Shown piece by piece: positions 1-6,266 of a stretch of DNA of 6,266 nt. The position numbers and the translations under genes were made by a program. The stretch's first letter is position 1. Each line of letters begins with the position of its first letter. This DNA is from an uncultured Chromatiaceae bacterium (GTDB taxonomy: Bacteria > Pseudomonadota > Gammaproteobacteria > Enterobacterales > Alteromonadaceae), in the NCBI GenBank assembly GCA_946482325.1, contig CAMLRA010000197.1:1-6266 (forward strand), given 5' to 3'. The notes below the pieces were generated by a model. That model was not told the origin of the DNA. It was given only the letters and a program-made list of their open reading frames with translations, and did not search any database.

Positions 1-3000
1 AGTTCGATTGATGGATTTGAAAGTGCAATGTCTGGATTTTTTAAGATGATATTTTTGCTTAATGAAACTGTTGATACTTCACGAGAGTAATTGAGCTTAT
101 ATAAGTCGATATGCGGATTACTACGACAGTTCAGGTAATACAAGGCTATCAGGGCTGTTTTCAGGCCGTAACCGGAGTTTTTAGGAGTTTGCGTTCCGTC
201 GTTCATCACACGAGTTAAGTTCAAAGAGACATAGGCGCGATTCTCAATGAATAAGTACTGCGGGTGTCTGATGAGCATCCGCTTGAACGTTCTCTGATTC
301 ACACCCTTGTTCCTCATCAACGATTGACGCACCTGGGCATCAGGTTCTGCTTTGTTGCGAAGCGACAGCTTGAGTTTATGTTCAGGCTCAAGCTGCTGAA
401 GGATGGGTTTGATGTTTTTGATAAAGTCCTGCAGGCGTTTTTTGTAAAAGAAGCGGAAATCACTGAATTTGCCAGGACATACCCAAACCACATAGCTGGC
501 CGCGGCAAGCACCATCGATTGTTTCGTCGGTGTGAGCATGTGATAAATCTTAAATATTTGCTGAGTCAGCGCAGCGTCCCGACGATGGCATGGCCAGATT
601 GGCAATCTGACATGCGGGCAATTTATTGGTTTGTCGTTATTTTGAAAGTGGTGGTCGTACTGCTGGCTACGCCTTTTCAGCGGTTTTTTCTGCGCAAGCT
701 GATGTAAAGCCTCGACTGCAGCCTTGAGCTTGTCGATATCCACAAGAAATCTCTTCGCGACATCCTCAAGTGATACTTGCGCAAAGTTGTTCTGATAAAA
801 GTGTAGCGCCTGGTAAAACCTGCTGTCTGAGAGGCCATAGAAATGGTCATGAATTTTCTCGCGAAGAACCTGCGTTTTGGTTGTTTCGGGAATTGCATGA
901 CAAAACGGCTGAAGCTGTTTTGCGACCAGCCCGCCCAAGTGGCCTTGCTCCAAATGGCGAAACACCTTGCGCCGGTTAAGCCCCAGCAATTCAATTTCCC
1001 GCTCACGGCAGAAATGATGGTCGCGCCAACACTCAGCAACAGAGGCCCAGTGCATCGAATGTAAGTAGTGAAAAGTAGTGATTGATGGTCCAGAGTGCCC
1101 GGTCATCAGACTGATGGCATGCAGAACCTTTCGATTCGCCGCGCCAGGCTCTTGGTGAAAATACTTTGCTTTTGCTGCTGTGAGATGAGCCATCAGCGGA
1201 TGTTGCAGCTGCGTTTTTAGGGGGAACGCATGCGGATATTTATCCTGTTGCCAGTACCAGTAAAGCCAGGTCACAAAGCTATGGCGCAACCGGTGGAAGC
1301 GAAAGGTTGAGTCGTCTGTGATGATTTGCAGCAACTGCACCAGAGCGCCAAATAGTTGTTCATCCGGATAAAGCTCTGCATGGGCATTGTTTTGTGAAAA
1401 CAGATACTGCGCGCCCTGCCCGTTAAAAACCCGCGACTTCATAAAATCAAACAGCAGCGCAATTTCATCAGCTGTCGCTAAGAGCCCCAGGGGCACACGA
1501 CGTGTAGCGGAGGTTGATTTCAGCCCACGCTCTTCGTGGGGCCTGACGACAACCACCACTGAGTGTGGCAGCCACTGCTGCTCGCTAACACGCTGAATTT
1601 CGATATCGGTAAAGCGCAGCATGTAGGCTTCACTGCGCCGGAGGCCGCAGCGAAACCCTAACATGAGTAAAACGCTTTGCGCCTTTGCCACATCACTCGA
1701 TTGCCCAGCTAAATACGCCATGGCTTGCCCATACTCCGCAGGCAGCAGGATATTGGCATCGACTAAAATCGCTTTGTCCCGCTCGCCTTTCACAATGGTT
1801 TGGCTAAACACGTAACTTTGCGCCAGACCATAGGTTTTCATCAGGTAGATATGAAAATCCCGCAAAATGCGGGCACGCTTGGTTTTACCCGCGATATTCG
1901 CCGCGCCGTCGATGATTTCGAAATACGCATCATCAATAGCTTCTGCTGAAAGTGTCTCGATTTTTTGCTCTTTGAATTGCCGGGCGAGTGGTTCAAAAAT
2001 GCTACCGAGCAAACTTAGCAAACTCTTGGGCCGAATTTTGCCGGACCAATGACTTTGGTTCACCAATCGATGCGCCGTCCAGCCAATTAAATCACGAGTC
2101 ACCGGCAATAAATTCGCATCCCTGTCCTCGGCGATTTTTCGGATTTCCTGACTGAATGCGGCAAGGCTTACTGCATCATTGCTCTTTTGACTTCGGCCTT
2201 TTGTGTTTTCCGCTTGCTGCAATGTTGTGGCGGCACTTCTTAACAGCCCCCGCACCTTTCTCATGTTGTCCGCACAGGAACTGAGCGCAGTCTGAGACTT
2301 GGTAAATTCGGGACGTTCTGTGCATTTGGGATTTATCCACTCTTCAACGTCGGCGGCTGCCTCATCTTGTCGCGGATATCGACAACCCAGTAACCGATAA
2401 AACGATACTGGGTCGAGCGTCAAGTTTGGCGCTTGGTCAGCCATGACCGGCAACAGGCATGGCGTTATATTGAGAGACAACCGCGCTAGCATTAAATCCT
2501 GCAACGCAGTTGTGGACATCGTTGCAAGTTCAGCATGACCCTCGCGACGGAAAAAATCGCGCAAACATTTTTGGTGTGCCAAGCCAAGCGGGAGCTGCAT
2601 GATGTGTTGCTTCGCTTGATAAAAAACATTCAGTAACAGCAATGACACGGGATCTGGCAACCACAGCTGGGTTTCACCCGCTTTTCCGGTAAGCTCAAAC
2701 CAAATCACTTCGTGATGACAATATGGGTTGCCCTCTAAAAGCGTCGTGAGTAACGCGCTTTGTAAATCATCCCGCAGCAAACCACCAAAACGCATCGCAC
2801 AGTAAAGCAATCGCCCCAGGTAGACAGTCCAATCCGAAGTTTTCCAGAAGCGTGCACTAACATCGGCATTAAGATTAAACAGTTCTTTTGAAGCATATTC
2901 CTGAAGCAGCTTGCGGTCACACTGTTCCAGCAGCGGCAACAACTTTAGGTTCCCCTGACGTAATGGCGGTTTTGGCCGCCTGATTTGCACTGGCTCACGC

Positions 3001-3260
3001 AGTTTGAGGCCGTAAAATTGCGGATTGTTTCGATGCGAAATGATGTAATCGTTCAGATGCTTTAACAGCCCAATCGCGGAATGCGTGCGACTTTTCGCCT
3101 TTTTGGTCTGGTCACCCGGAGCGCTGAAAATGGCCCAGAATAGATTGTCGTAGTCCGTTTGGGTGAGTCTTACTACATCACTGTGAATGTGTCCCGCGAT
3201 CTCCCGCACGACATCCTTCATGATTGTAATTAACTCAGCTGGCAAATCTCCAAACTTCAT
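1..3260 (-). CDS. Giant tyrosine recombinase/integrase, C-terminus cut by window edge
   Basis: This frame is open from an ATG at 3260 to position 1 with no stop, giving 1086 codons plus two bases; the 3' end lies outside the window. The product is inferred to be a site-specific tyrosine recombinase that cuts and rejoins DNA through a phosphotyrosine. Visible signature residues are R541 in FRCGLRRSEAYMLRFTDI, a likely beta-hairpin K581 (GLKSTS, followed by TRRVPL), H656/R659 in HRLRHSF, H722 in TGHSGPSITT and the nucleophile Y732 in FHYLH. Residues about 390-490 look like the helical core-binding domain before the catalytic core. XerC/D-type enzymes have about 300 residues, so the N-terminal (about 390) and C-terminal (over 350) parts are additions of unknown function; a possible helix-turn-helix lies near 830-852. 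The ATG overlaps the stop of the upstream gene and has no clear Shine-Dalgarno, which suggests translational coupling. The recombinase class is well supported; the exact family and target site are unknown. Confidence 0.5.
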   Translation of the reverse strand, partial: MKFGDLPAELITIMKDVVREIAGHIHSDVVRLTQTDYDNLFWAIFSAPGDQTKKAKSRTHSAIGLLKHLNDYIISHRNNPQFYGLKLREPVQIRRPKPPLRQGNLKLLPLLEQCDRKLLQEYASKELFNLNADVSARFWKTSDWTVYLGRLLYCAMRFGGLLRDDLQSALLTTLLEGNPYCHHEVIWFELTGKAGETQLWLPDPVSLLLLNVFYQAKQHIMQLPLGLAHQKCLRDFFRREGHAELATMSTTALQDLMLARLSLNITPCLLPVMADQAPNLTLDPVSFYRLLGCRYPRQDEAAADVEEWINPKCTERPEFTKSQTALSSCADNMRKVRGLLRSAATTLQQAENTKGRSQKSNDAVSLAAFSQEIRKIAEDRDANLLPVTRDLIGWTAHRLVNQSHWSGKIRPKSLLSLLGSIFEPLARQFKEQKIETLSAEAIDDAYFEIIDGAANIAGKTKRARILRDFHIYLMKTYGLAQSYVFSQTIVKGERDKAILVDANILLPAEYGQAMAYLAGQSSDVAKAQSVLLMLGFRCGLRRSEAYMLRFTDIEIQRVSEQQWLPHSVVVVVRPHEERGLKSTSATRRVPLGLLATADEIALLFDFMKSRVFNGQGAQYLFSQNNAHAELYPDEQLFGALVQLLQIITDDSTFRFHRLRHSFVTWLYWYWQQDKYPHAFPLKTQLQHPLMAHLTAAKAKYFHQEPGAANRKVLHAISLMTGHSGPSITTFHYLHSMHWASVAECWRDHHFCREREIELLGLNRRKVFRHLEQGHLGGLVAKQLQPFCHAIPETTKTQVLREKIHDHFYGLSDSRFYQALHFYQNNFAQVSLEDVAKRFLVDIDKLKAAVEALHQLAQKKPLKRRSQQYDHHFQNNDKPINCPHVRLPIWPCHRRDAALTQQIFKIYHMLTPTKQSMVLAAASYVVWVCPGKFSDFRFFYKKRLQDFIKNIKPILQQLEPEHKLKLSLRNKAEPDAQVRQSLMRNKGVNQRTFKRMLIRHPQYLFIENRAYVSLNLTRVMNDGTQTPKNSGYGLKTALIALYYLNCRSNPHIDLYKLNYSREVSTVSLSKNIILKNPDIALSNPSIE
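3257..3260 (-). promoter_or_regulatory. ATGA stop-start overlap between the two recombinase-like genes
   Basis: The ATG of the giant recombinase (3260-3258) shares bases with the TGA of the upstream gene (3259-3257). The preceding bases show no purine-rich Shine-Dalgarno, so translation of the downstream gene probably depends on ribosomes finishing the upstream one. This would keep the two proteins at linked levels. Confidence 0.5.
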
Positions 3261-5770
3261 GCGCAAAGCCCGGTTATAGCGCGAATATTCAGCTTTTGAA
3301 TCAACTTATCCAGCCGCGGATTTAGCGCCTGTCGGATATCGGTCAATGATAGCGTTGATTCGGCATGCCAAAAATGCTCCCCCAGATTGCCATGCCCGAG
3401 ATAGGCATCAATCATTTCAGCGGGGACGCGTTCCATATCAAGATATGAGCGCAAAAAACGTCGGTGGCTGTTGGCAGGTAAATCTAACCATGGCGCCAGC
3501 AGCTCGGCATATTGCTTTGGCCGAAACGCTGATATCGCCACATGGACAACACTACCTGCCACTTTTGGCTGAGCCCCTGAGTTACTGAAGAAAAAAGGCG
3601 TCGGGCACTGCAGCGATTGCCATTGTTCCAGCATCCCAATCCGGTGCAGCCGCCCGGCAATGGCGTTGATATGGTTTTGATAGCTCTCGGCAATTTGGAT
3701 AGCGACTGAATGCACTGGCATGATGCGGCTATGGAACTCATCTTCGGTGTCTTTATCACGAAGCACCGTCACGTCGGCACCATGAAGAATGTCGCTAAAA
3801 CGGATAAAACCTTGATGCGTGGGCCGAAGCCCGGTCAGTAACCCCTGGCAGAGAATGCAATAGACGGTGAATTCATTGTGAAAGAGCTGCCAATTATCAT
3901 CCTGAAGGAGCGCCTTTCTGCGCTGCTCAAGCCGCGCCCGCAGCCCAGCAATGGCATGGACATATTGCTGCTCGGTCGGTAGATATCGACAGCCGAGTGA
4001 CAATAGTGGCGTGTGCACAGGACTATCTGATTGCACGAAGTTCAAATTCACGCCAGAGCTTTCCGACATCTCCAGGATTAACTCGCGATATCGGGCCCGA
4101 ATTTCAGCAACAGGCAGCGCGGTGTAATAAAGTCTCGCCTGACTGCCAGGAGCTGGTCTGCCGAACATCAATGTGGCCGTCGCGCTCCCATAGCGCTGAC
4201 AAGCTCGGATAAATAAATGATTGGCTACCTGCGATAAAGAGATATCTCGAAGCTCGCCACGGCTCCCCAGCCACTGGAAATCCTCGGCGCGCACCCACAT
4301 TTGGAGATTGTCGAATAAACGGTCAGTTCGGTGATACCAATTGTCGTCGATGTCAGCGGCCAACCAGCCTGCCAATTCATCCGGAAACGGAAGCTTGATA
4401 CCGTTTGCAAGCGGGGTTGCCAGTACATCACGCATCGTTTGTTGGTAGTTGATGGCAAATGCCGGGAGCCCAACTTCAGCGCCATCTGCGCGCAGATAAA
4501 CAGCCTCGAATTGATTCTCACTGAGGCTGCTGCTCACTTTTGAGAATTTGAACCCTTGGCTATCTCTGGCACAAAACAGCATCAGCAACACACATTTGGC
4601 TACTTCTTTGTTTTCCGAGTTCGCCCCCAGGCAAACAGTTAAAATGTGCCTCAGCTGAATATCAGACAATGACTGAAAGGAAGATGGTAGGTACTGATGT
4701 TGGCGTTCAATCCGCTTTCGCACTGCACCGGCCAGACGCTTGCCATGAAATGCGGTGATGTAATGCTCCATCGGTTCATAATTGGTAAATACGAAAGCTT
4801 CTTGCGAAGGTTGTTCAAACAATTCCTCCCCTGCTGCAATTTCTGCCTCGCCGTAATCAGTCTCGACTAACGAGTACAGCGTATCTTCAGCGCCTGGTGT
4901 TTCCGCGAGAGTCTCCGGATACAGTAAGGCACTTCCGGTTAATGCGGATATGCCATGGTGTCCGATATCGCCAAGACTGCCATTAGCACCACCTTTGCCA
5001 CGCCTTCTCGTTTTTCGCTTTTTCTCAGAACCAAGAGCGATGGTCAAAATTCTGATGACTTCGTTAATTTCGTAGTACAAATACTGATTCACCAACTCTG
5101 GATTGTCGGATTTGTATTGCCCCTGACCTTTCAAGTAGTTTGGTGGCATCGCACTATTGGCGACAAAGTAGCGCTTCAGGTCGTGTAAAAAATCAATAAA
5201 GGCCGAATAACTTGGACAGTCTCGGCAATCCGCTTGCTTCAGCCACTGCAGACCGACTGGATTGTCATCCGTTAAACGACGCATGGCAGTACTGATTTTA
5301 TTAAAATCGTGCTGCTTGAAGGCATGAGCCCGACCGAAGTGCTTCAAAGTGACCTGACGAAAAGTGAAGAGGTACTGTCGCAACCAGTTAAAAAACGGCT
5401 GATTTTCAGCACTGTGCAAATAGAACAGCGGATAAAGCGGATGTAGACTCAAGGTTCCGCGCAGAGCTTTATCAAGCTTCGTAGTCTCCTGATTTCTTGA
5501 TAGTTTTTCATGCTTTTTTTGGGTAGTAATGAAAGCATGGCAACGATGGGCCAGCTCTGCCAGACGGCTTGTCTCCTCAGCAACTTCGTCCAGGTTGCTT
5601 ATATCCATCATCATCGGTAATTCGAAGGTCTCTTTGAGATTTTGAAACACACCGGCAATTCCGACTAAGCTCTCAGGCGCATCCAATCGCTCTAATAAAA
5701 ACGGCAATAGCCGCCGGTCTTGCTCGTGTTCGAGCTGAAAAATCTCAAAGGCAAAAGTCCGATCAGTCAT
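3257..5770 (-). CDS. Degenerate tyrosine-recombinase-like protein lacking the catalytic tyrosine
   Basis: This complete gene encodes about 837 residues counted from the ATG at 5770. That start is favoured by a short GAG four bases upstream and by the small overlap; an ATG at 5779 or a TTG at 5782 would add three or four residues. The C-terminal 200 residues resemble a DNA breaking-rejoining core: R649 in TGLRPTHQGFIRFSDI, a possible K673 followed by R682, an R771-F-L-R774 segment where HxxR is expected, and LGH ending at H793. No tyrosine occurs among the 44 residues after H793, so the usual nucleophile is absent. Other visible features are a C182xxC185 pair, a basic cluster at 250-259 (KKRKTRRRGK) and an acidic stretch at 290-326 with no Lys or Arg. 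The first half is not recognised. Sitting between a ParB-like gene and an intact giant recombinase, it is best inferred to be a non-catalytic DNA-binding or synapsis partner. An unusual nucleophile is the alternative. Confidence 0.5.
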   Translation of the reverse strand: MTDRTFAFEIFQLEHEQDRRLLPFLLERLDAPESLVGIAGVFQNLKETFELPMMMDISNLDEVAEETSRLAELAHRCHAFITTQKKHEKLSRNQETTKLDKALRGTLSLHPLYPLFYLHSAENQPFFNWLRQYLFTFRQVTLKHFGRAHAFKQHDFNKISTAMRRLTDDNPVGLQWLKQADCRDCPSYSAFIDFLHDLKRYFVANSAMPPNYLKGQGQYKSDNPELVNQYLYYEINEVIRILTIALGSEKKRKTRRRGKGGANGSLGDIGHHGISALTGSALLYPETLAETPGAEDTLYSLVETDYGEAEIAAGEELFEQPSQEAFVFTNYEPMEHYITAFHGKRLAGAVRKRIERQHQYLPSSFQSLSDIQLRHILTVCLGANSENKEVAKCVLLMLFCARDSQGFKFSKVSSSLSENQFEAVYLRADGAEVGLPAFAINYQQTMRDVLATPLANGIKLPFPDELAGWLAADIDDNWYHRTDRLFDNLQMWVRAEDFQWLGSRGELRDISLSQVANHLFIRACQRYGSATATLMFGRPAPGSQARLYYTALPVAEIRARYRELILEMSESSGVNLNFVQSDSPVHTPLLSLGCRYLPTEQQYVHAIAGLRARLEQRRKALLQDDNWQLFHNEFTVYCILCQGLLTGLRPTHQGFIRFSDILHGADVTVLRDKDTEDEFHSRIMPVHSVAIQIAESYQNHINAIAGRLHRIGMLEQWQSLQCPTPFFFSNSGAQPKVAGSVVHVAISAFRPKQYAELLAPWLDLPANSHRRFLRSYLDMERVPAEMIDAYLGHGNLGEHFWHAESTLSLTDIRQALNPRLDKLIQKLNIRAITGLCA
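5763..5770 (-). promoter_or_regulatory. Eight-base gene overlap at the ParB-like/recombinase-like junction
   Basis: The stop of the ParB-like gene (5765-5763) lies inside the first codons of the next gene, whose preferred ATG is at 5770-5768. A weak GAG at 5777-5775 may act as a ribosome binding site. If the ATG at 5779 is used instead, the overlap is 17 bases. Either way there is no room for a separate promoter between the genes. Confidence 0.5.
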
Positions 5771-6266
5771 TGGTCTCATCAACTGCAGGCGAGAGGCTAT
5801 CGTCTTTTACATAACGCAGATTACGGTATTTAGGCAGGCTACTCAGGGTGTCGCCGCTGACGTGCTTTTTAATCAGCCTCAGCTGCTCGAACACTTTATT
5901 CCCCAGCGAAAACAATAAAGGGCTACCGGCTACATCCAGTTCAGCCAGCTTGATAACCTCTGTAGTTTTGAGTTTTGGATGGATAACAACCGGGATGAAG
6001 TTGAGTTGCTGGGCGTCCTGCGCGGACAACACCCGCGCTGCACAAATCAGTTCATACAGCCGAAAGCCTGCAACAACCTGAAATTTATTTGAGTTATGTA
6101 CCGCGTCATCTGTTGTTGCTGCAACTTTCGGCGCGCCGCGCTCGACCACGTGAATAGGATAGAGCCTCGCCAAAGCCAGTAATCCAGCCGGCTCAATATC
6201 CTTGACTGTCGCGGTGTAAGTCGCCGCATGTAACTTTTCAACAAGCTCTGCAGCCTTCGGATGTAG
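5763..6266 (-). CDS. ParB-like domain protein, 5' end cut by window edge
   Basis: This is the last 167 codons of a gene entering from the right edge; its frame is open to 6266 and it ends with TGA at 5765-5763. A TTG at 6173 could serve as a start, but the frame stays open upstream with similar protein character, so the gene is treated as partial. The pattern YPIHVV, then KFQVVAGFRLYEL, then FIPVVI resembles the N-terminal ParB/sulfiredoxin fold, in which a strand with Pro-Ile-x-Val precedes a VxxGxRR-type turn and a closing strand. Here the GxRR turn reads GFRL, so any nucleotide-binding motif is altered. The tail is basic and then acidic (YRNLRYVKDDSLSPAVDETND). It overlaps the next gene by about 8 bases, suggesting shared translation and a joint role, perhaps binding or organising the element's ends. 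The ParB assignment rests on this short pattern only and is moderate at best. Confidence 0.5.
   Translation of the reverse strand, partial: LHPKAAELVEKLHAATYTATVKDIEPAGLLALARLYPIHVVERGAPKVAATTDDAVHNSNKFQVVAGFRLYELICAARVLSAQDAQQLNFIPVVIHPKLKTTEVIKLAELDVAGSPLLFSLGNKVFEQLRLIKKHVSGDTLSSLPKYRNLRYVKDDSLSPAVDETND

What the first reader, a model, noticed from the sequence alone, without database searches (positions are those of the whole stretch)
1..6266. Overlapping trio: ParB-like protein, nucleophile-less recombinase homologue and giant tyrosine recombinase
Three same-strand genes overlap with no intergenic DNA. One has a complete tyrosine-recombinase catalytic set, one has a related core without the tyrosine, and one looks ParB-like. 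Coupled expression suggests one machine, probably the integration module of a genomic island. Known trios (Tn554 TnpABC, RIT elements, Gamma-Mobile-Trio GmtX/GmtY/GmtZ) give precedents. It could be a member or distant relative of the Gamma-Mobile-Trio type, or a separate class defined by the ParB-like partner; I cannot decide this from sequence reading.
Basis: partly seen in the sequence, partly recalled or inferred. Interest (0 to 1): 0.72.

Follow-up and report, generated by a model that had tools for sequence, protein, structure and literature searches.

The report
Unnamed three-gene genomic-island integration module
Three overlapping genes - a ParB-like protein, a recombinase relative without its cutting tyrosine, and a very large complete recombinase - travel together through many bacteria and, where island ends could be traced, sit in genomic islands in tRNA genes, so they look like a DNA-integration machine for which we found no name.

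Summary
A (ParB-like, 5' end cut), B (841 aa) and C (1,088 aa visible, 3' end cut) overlap by 8 and 4 bp. C keeps the full tyrosine-recombinase active site. B's model has that fold and keeps R, K, R, H; the window's B has no tyrosine at the nucleophile region, though 21 of 58 relatives have one at a nearby, unconserved column. A resembles ParB/Noc. Curated GmtX/Y/Z models work here and do not match, so this is no Gamma-Mobile-Trio; SE proteins show no specific match. B lies directly upstream of C in 63 of 65 testable loci, A upstream of B in 50 of 56: mainly Gamma- and Betaproteobacteria and Desulfuromonadales. In five Polynucleobacter genomes the module lies beside a 39-nt tRNA-Val half-copy, with an unrelated second integrase near the intact tRNA; at least 60 of 101 genus genomes show the empty site. 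One Desulfuromonadales island has 41-bp tRNA-Gly repeats and the trio as its only detected recombinase. Some neighbouring genes are restriction-modification or Abi genes. Most likely an integration/excision module of islands; activity is inferred, the second integrase is a serious rival, and the window's own island ends were not found.

The parts
5763..6266 (-). Gene A: ParB/Noc-like protein, 167 aa visible; 5' end cut by the window edge
3257..5770 (-). Gene B: tyrosine-recombinase-fold protein without a tyrosine at the nucleophile region (ORF extends to 5782; homologues start at ATG 5770)
1..3260 (-). Gene C: giant tyrosine recombinase, catalytic region about residues 509-740 of the ORF; 3' end cut by the window edge (ORF extends to 3266)
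   Evidence: (PF00589, 31.8 bits against cut-off 27.1)
5763..5770 (-). A/B overlap ATGACTGA
3257..3260 (-). B/C overlap ATGA
3824..3826 (-). B R653, counterpart of Arg I
   Evidence: identical in 58 of 58
3752..3754 (-). B K677, counterpart of the catalytic Lys
   Evidence: identical in 58 of 58
3461..3472 (-). B N771-xx-R774: the HxxR motif with His replaced by Asn
   Evidence: N in 56 of 58, R in 58 of 58
3356..3397 (-). B GH box (G796-H797) to S809, where the nucleophilic tyrosine would be; none here. In relatives column 808 is Y in 21 of 58, F in 12, other residues in the rest
1638..1640 (-). C R543 (Arg I)
   Evidence: 64 of 64
1518..1520 (-). C K583
   Evidence: 64 of 64
1281..1295 (-). 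C H658-xx-R661-H662
   Evidence: 64 of 64, (this stretch was part of a search pattern)
1095..1097 (-). C H724 (box III)
   Evidence: 64 of 64
1065..1067 (-). C Y734, nucleophile
   Evidence: 64 of 64

Best explanation
The three genes are one co-expressed integration/excision module of genomic islands. C is the only protein with a complete, conserved active site and should cut and rejoin DNA. B has the recombinase fold and most active-site residues but, in the window, no tyrosine to cut with; it most likely binds the same core or arm sites as a non-cutting partner in a mixed C/B complex. A, a small ParB-like protein encoded first, most likely binds the island end, which in four Polynucleobacter genomes lies about 160-170 bp upstream of it, and helps assemble the complex or set its direction. 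Shown: the gene set, its linkage, the active-site patterns, predicted folds, and island ends in tRNA genes with empty sites in relatives. Inferred: that C is active, that A, B and C form one complex, the roles of B and A, and that the window's copy lies in such an island.
Against: A second integrase (Arm-DNA-bind_2 type) lies convergent within 5 kb downstream of C in 31 of 58 loci and near the intact tRNA-Val in all five Polynucleobacter genomes, so it could be the one that moves those islands. Four of the five share related trios, so they are not independent events. No empty site could be shown for L036: in the listed rows of 76 family genomes its two flanks are not adjacent. For Rheinheimera, the window's nearest relatives, no island ends were found. 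At column 808 of B, 21 of 58 relatives do have a tyrosine, so 'B cannot cut' is not established family-wide. The C profile matched no PDB sequence at E <= 0.01, and B and C do not align to each other by profile. No experiment.
Confidence: 0.68

Rival explanations
1. The Arm-DNA-bind_2 integrase at the far end moves the islands; the trio is an accessory module of the same islands (excision, maintenance, or control of island replication).
For: Convergent Arm-DNA-bind_2 integrase within 5 kb of C in 31 of 58 loci and near the intact tRNA-Val in 5 of 5 Polynucleobacter genomes (split at a contig end in G010); such an integrase lies next to narK in a Rheinheimera genome (G036) where R. texasensis has a trio.
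Against: In 27 of 58 loci none was found within 5 kb of the DNA held, which for some is only 3-5 kb; none in L036; the distantly related module of G316 occupies the same place next to the tRNA half-copy; C's active site is invariant.
Confidence: 0.2
2. The trio is a Gamma-Mobile-Trio, SE, GInt, RIT or Tn554 relative under another name.
For: Same general kind: overlapping multi-recombinase operons, in SE and GInt with one protein whose catalytic set is incomplete, at one end of islands with cargo (PMC10214605, PMC5385486).
Against: GMT models do not match (working); SE-6283 and SE-6945 proteins give no specific similarity (best is SE-6283 IntA to C's core, probability 76.4%); gene order, number and catalytic make-up differ. 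GInt proteins were not compared by sequence.
Confidence: 0.05
3. A Xer-like resolution or partition module for plasmids or chromosomes: ParB-like plus recombinase.
For: ParB-like partner; C relatives on 154 Acinetobacter plasmid records, the one inspected also with a B relative and an annotated terminase.
Against: Patchy chromosomal presence beside tRNA half-copies with variable neighbours; the first gene of the Acinetobacter operon inspected does not match A.
Confidence: 0.05

Closest known systems
GInt (ginABCD genomic islands, PMC5385486)
   Same: Recombinase operon at one end, variable cargo (2.5-70 kb), direct repeats at the ends, one protein (GinC) with an incomplete catalytic set; several phyla (read)
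   Different: GInt has three recombinase-like proteins plus a small protein last; here two recombinase-fold proteins with the small ParB-like gene first. GInt repeats are 10-17 nt; here 39-41 nt of a tRNA. Not compared by sequence.
SE, strand-biased circularizing elements (intA-tfp-intB-srap, PMC10214605)
   Same: Overlapping operon with a tyrosine-recombinase-fold protein that lacks the catalytic motif (Tfp); all four genes needed for attL x attR recombination
   Different: Two complete recombinases and a small gene last; Tfp lacks the RHRY motif, whereas B keeps R, K, R and H. No specific profile similarity.
Gamma-Mobile-Trio (GmtX/GmtY/GmtZ)
   Same: Three-gene module of mobile elements rich in offensive and defensive systems (a citing passage; the GMT paper itself was not seen)
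   Different: No match to any of the three models; in the Marinomonas genome used as control GmtY is 440 aa and the GmtZ frame 905 aa
RIT (RitA/B/C) and Tn554 (TnpA/B/C)
   Same: Adjacent, in RIT overlapping, recombinase genes
   Different: All three Rit families show a possible catalytic motif, and TnpA and TnpB both carry RHRY (figure legend); here only C is complete and one partner is ParB-like

Membership tests
Gamma-Mobile-Trio | Proteins match curated GmtX, GmtY and GmtZ models | tested here: not met
   No match; the models find members over cut-off in a Marinomonas genome; the R. texasensis genome has only a sub-cut-off GmtY match, away from its trios; hhalign probabilities with the Gmt proteins at most 1.9%
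SE elements | Homologues of IntA, Tfp, IntB and Srap in order | tested here: not met
   no hmmsearch match for 8 SE proteins; only generic core similarity of SE-6283 IntA to C (probability 76.4%) and to B (13.8%)
SE elements | Two recombinases with full catalytic motif | tested here: not met
   Only C is complete in the window
SE elements | Strand-biased circularization without an empty donor site | not testable with these tools
   needs an experiment
GInt | ginABCD: three recombinase-like genes followed by one small gene | tested here: not met
   Two recombinase-fold proteins with the small gene first
GInt | Sequence homology to GinA-D | not tested
   no Gin sequence was fetched
GInt | Operon at one end, variable cargo, direct repeats, empty sites | tested here: met
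   Polynucleobacter islands only; not shown for the window itself
RIT | Three adjacent recombinases each with a catalytic motif | tested here: not met
   A is ParB-like, the window's B lacks the tyrosine:
Tn554-like | Two recombinases (TnpA, TnpB) with RHRY | tested here: not met
   definition. No Tn554 sequence was compared
Tyrosine recombinase superfamily (C) | R, K, HxxR, H and Y present and conserved | tested here: met
   Pfam PF00589 above cut-off
Tyrosine recombinase superfamily, active (B) | Conserved nucleophilic tyrosine | tested here: not met
   Absent in the window's B and not conserved in 58 (column 808: Y in 21, F in 12); fold match
ParB/Noc N-terminal domain (A) | Sequence-profile and fold similarity | tested here: met
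   (Z middling); plain Foldseek gave no match at E <= 0.001 and Pfam none
ParB CTPase (A) | GERR and ENxQR motifs (recalled, from no call) | tested here: not met
   By eye: window A has AGFRLYEL and no ENxQR; the motif definition is from memory

The most novel reading that the evidence does not exclude
These islands carry two unrelated tyrosine-recombinase machines at opposite ends. Where the obligatory partner B cannot cut, a mixed C/B complex could exchange only one strand pair, so the island would leave by a one-strand, replication-dependent copy-out route steered by a ParB-like factor, while the other integrase inserts it.
Probability: 0.12. Interest if true: 0.85.

Novelty: new variant of a known kind. 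Interest (0 to 1): 0.62.

Why it matters
It is a widespread integration module for which I found no name. In the members scanned, Pfam and NCBIfam gave no specific model: only C or its relatives hit general recombinase models. It gives a marker for finding islands in environmental bacteria. Its middle protein keeps the recombinase R, K, R and H but has Asn for the first His and no conserved tyrosine, so it makes a standing question testable: why SE and GInt operons, and this one, keep a recombinase relative with an incomplete active site.

Tried and rejected
Gamma-Mobile-Trio, SE, RIT and Tn554 membership were considered and rejected (see Membership tests). A search for direct repeats between the 700 bp upstream of A and the DNA held downstream of C gave a convincing hit only in L066; other right ends mostly lie beyond the DNA held. 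Empty-site searches for R. texasensis, Marinobacter, Halomonas and the L036 family gave no clean pair. A tRNA is not next to every trio: 6 of 70 loci contained one; Rfam scans gave tRNAs in L047 and L066 among the 6 loci and nothing in L037. Viral contigs and phages gave no relative of C; B alone matched only 2 plasmid records. The B-profile search of the protein database returned only the four proteins already known, although B was identified next to C in 63 loci: that search is insensitive here. The C profile found no PDB sequence at E <= 0.01; the B profile found a Xer-like recombinase at E 0.011. Plain Foldseek gave no match at E <= 0.001 for A or B; ParB appeared by profile and VIA-align, recombinases for B by VIA-align. 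B against C by profile gave nothing significant, so their kinship rests on B's fold match and motif pattern. The A family was gathered by iterated profiles and is poorly conserved (mean column identity 15%). On checking, the tyrosine at column 808 in 21 of 58 B relatives made me lower the novel reading from 0.15 to 0.12.

Literature searches for a name of this trio listed none in the open-licence library; subscription papers are not covered. The GMT paper itself is not held; citing passages were seen. Of PMC5385486 the outline with abstract, part 1 of 6 of the text and section 11 were read; of PMC10214605 part 1 of 10 and passages; of PMC8138268 and PMC3414803 passages only.
Full report
What is there. 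The window holds three overlapping minus-strand genes: A (5763-6266, 5' end cut), B (ORF 3257-5782, 841 aa) and C (ORF 3-3266, 1,088 aa visible, 3' end cut). If B and C start where their homologues do, A and B share ATGACTGA and B and C share ATGA. Only C matches Pfam (PF00589, 31.8 bits against a cut-off of 27.1, residues 509-669). NCBIfam gives only chance-level matches far below cut-off and PADLOC none. No genome is held for the window; proteins 98% (B) and 94% (C) identical are held from one source, 'lgn'.

How widespread. C has 20 database relatives at E <= 0.001, one of them marginal; some are named Rheinheimera, Arsukibacterium or Alishewanella. One scan of genomes (one per species) with the C alignment gave 70 loci: mostly Gammaproteobacteria (Rheinheimera, Marinobacter, Halomonas and relatives), Betaproteobacteria (Polynucleobacter, Thauera, Vogesella and others), Desulfuromonadales or Deltaproteobacteria, one Nitrospirae MAG and one Bryobacterales MAG. 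The patterns came from C itself, so this is a sample, not a census. Of the 70, 65 have at least 800 bp upstream of C; 63 of these have B there, the exceptions being L035 and L067. Of those 63, 56 have room for A; 50 have A, and 46 of the 50 lie within 20 bp of B or overlap it, while in L031 and L043 A is about 840 bp away. A was not found in L045, L050 (the Bryobacterales MAG), L053, L055, L063 and L068, and could not be looked for in the Nitrospirae MAG, whose contig ends near B. All 52 A-profile hits lie upstream of a B. Overlaps are measured from the first start codon and so are upper bounds. B and C distances correlate at r = 0.977 over 49 loci with all three genes near full length, A and B at 0.898, A and C at 0.904; among distant pairs 0.945, 0.647 and 0.697. 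Shared ancestry of neighbouring genes gives such a correlation; it says that the set is inherited as a unit.

Where it sits. In Polynucleobacter, L066 (G008) has its left host flank up to the trio and an intact tRNA-Val at the right. In at least 60 of the 101 genus genomes searched (my count of the listed rows, a truncated list) the two flanks adjoin with an overlap of about 43 bp, which is the first half of tRNA-Val; three of these were fetched and read. Three of the 101 (G008, G010, G084) match through the trio there. Two further genomes reached through loci, G009 and G316, also carry the module there. G008, G009, G010 and G084 have related trios (80-94% nucleotide identity) and are not independent. 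G316's (L053) is another lineage: it shows no nucleotide match to L066 passing the filter (over 78%, over 300 bp), its B and C match the profiles, and A was not detected. The half-copy lies about 165 bp from A in G008, G009 and G010 and G084, and about 280 bp from B in G316. Both ends are on one contig in G008 (11.7 kb), G316 (about 30 kb) and G009 (about 66 kb); in G010 and G084 they are on different contigs. All five also carry an Arm-DNA-bind_2 integrase near the intact tRNA, facing the trio (split at a contig end in G010).

That second integrase matters. It is convergent within 5 kb downstream of C in 31 of 58 loci with at least 3 kb of downstream sequence. Its family is ordinary (PF12167 with PF00589). 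It could move these islands, with the trio as accessory. Against that, the Desulfuromonadales locus L036 has a 41-bp copy of the 3' half of tRNA-Gly at 4636-4676 and the intact tRNA-Gly at 13332-13406 (40 of 41 identical). Between them are a DUF234/AAA ATPase gene, A, B, C and small ORFs without a Pfam match; no other recombinase was found. No empty site could be shown for it: in the listed rows from 76 family genomes the two flanks are not adjacent.

Neighbouring genes. Ten hand-picked nearby proteins from six loci were scanned with PADLOC: type I restriction-modification subunits (L037, L042, L059), AbiD (L037), AbiEi and AbiEii (L003) and weak restriction-type matches (L058); HipA in L066 did not match. 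This was a choice, not a survey; island membership was shown only for HipA in L066, and the AbiE genes lie on the A side of their trio.

Relation to known systems. The GmtX, GmtY and GmtZ models are in the library used and find their targets in a Marinomonas genome, yet match nothing here. Eight SE proteins, three Gmt proteins and one Arm-DNA-bind_2 integrase were compared with the A, B and C profiles: the only notable signal is SE-6283 IntA with C's core at 76.4% probability. As positive controls, Acinetobacter plasmid proteins match C (E 7e-54) and B (hhalign 97.4%), while that operon's first protein does not match A. SE and GInt papers describe a recombinase relative with an incomplete active site whose operon is needed for recombination, the best precedent for B.

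Verdict. A distinct family of three-protein integration modules, of the same general kind as GInt and SE but with a different protein set. I did not find it named in the open library. Function is inferred; the key experiment is an attL x attR assay with and without each gene and the second integrase.

Noticed in passing
L037:12646-14561, L042:12566-14481, L058:12276-14195 and similar: In several Halomonas and Marinobacter loci the convergent Arm-DNA-bind_2 integrase is followed by two small ORFs (about 100 aa each, no Pfam match in the two loci scanned), in L037 beside a divergent HTH regulator; similar DNA also occurs in Marinobacter genomes where no match to the query trio was listed.
   Followed up: partly
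L002, L103, L004 (R. texasensis contig, 570000-652976): R. texasensis has two divergent trios in opposite orientation about 33 kb apart, with an Arm-DNA-bind_2 integrase and a tRNA-Arg fragment between them.
   Followed up: partly
L089 (NZ_AP024799.1) and 153 other Acinetobacter plasmid records: 154 of the 155 plasmid records with a C relative are Acinetobacter; in the one inspected it follows a B relative and a 154-aa first gene that does not match A, and the stretch also annotates a terminase.
   Followed up: partly
L083 (G036) 2491-4284 against L002 right flank: The downstream side of narK is variable: R. texasensis has a trio there, another Rheinheimera genome an Arm-DNA-bind_2 integrase and a small ORF that resembles the HTH regulator of L037.
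   Followed up: partly
L031, L065, L038: B is interrupted in L031 and L065 and C in L038, apparently decayed copies or sequence errors.
   Followed up: no
L035: The Thauera locus has A and B at its left end and C-like frames between 4984 and 11947, possibly two recombinase sets in tandem.
   Followed up: no
L005:6640-6840 and L007:5936-6150: Sequences upstream of A resemble 3' parts of tRNA-Arg (read by eye); no intact tRNA was found in the extended regions.
   Followed up: partly
L004:6791-6845 and L037:3178-3242: Short sequences (about 55-65 bp) that recur in many related genomes lie left of these trios; not identified (Rfam found nothing in L037).
   Followed up: no
L090 (NZ_AP026896.1): A 4.9-Mb record labelled an Aeromonas caviae plasmid holds a B homologue; its size suggests a mislabelled chromosome.
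   Followed up: no
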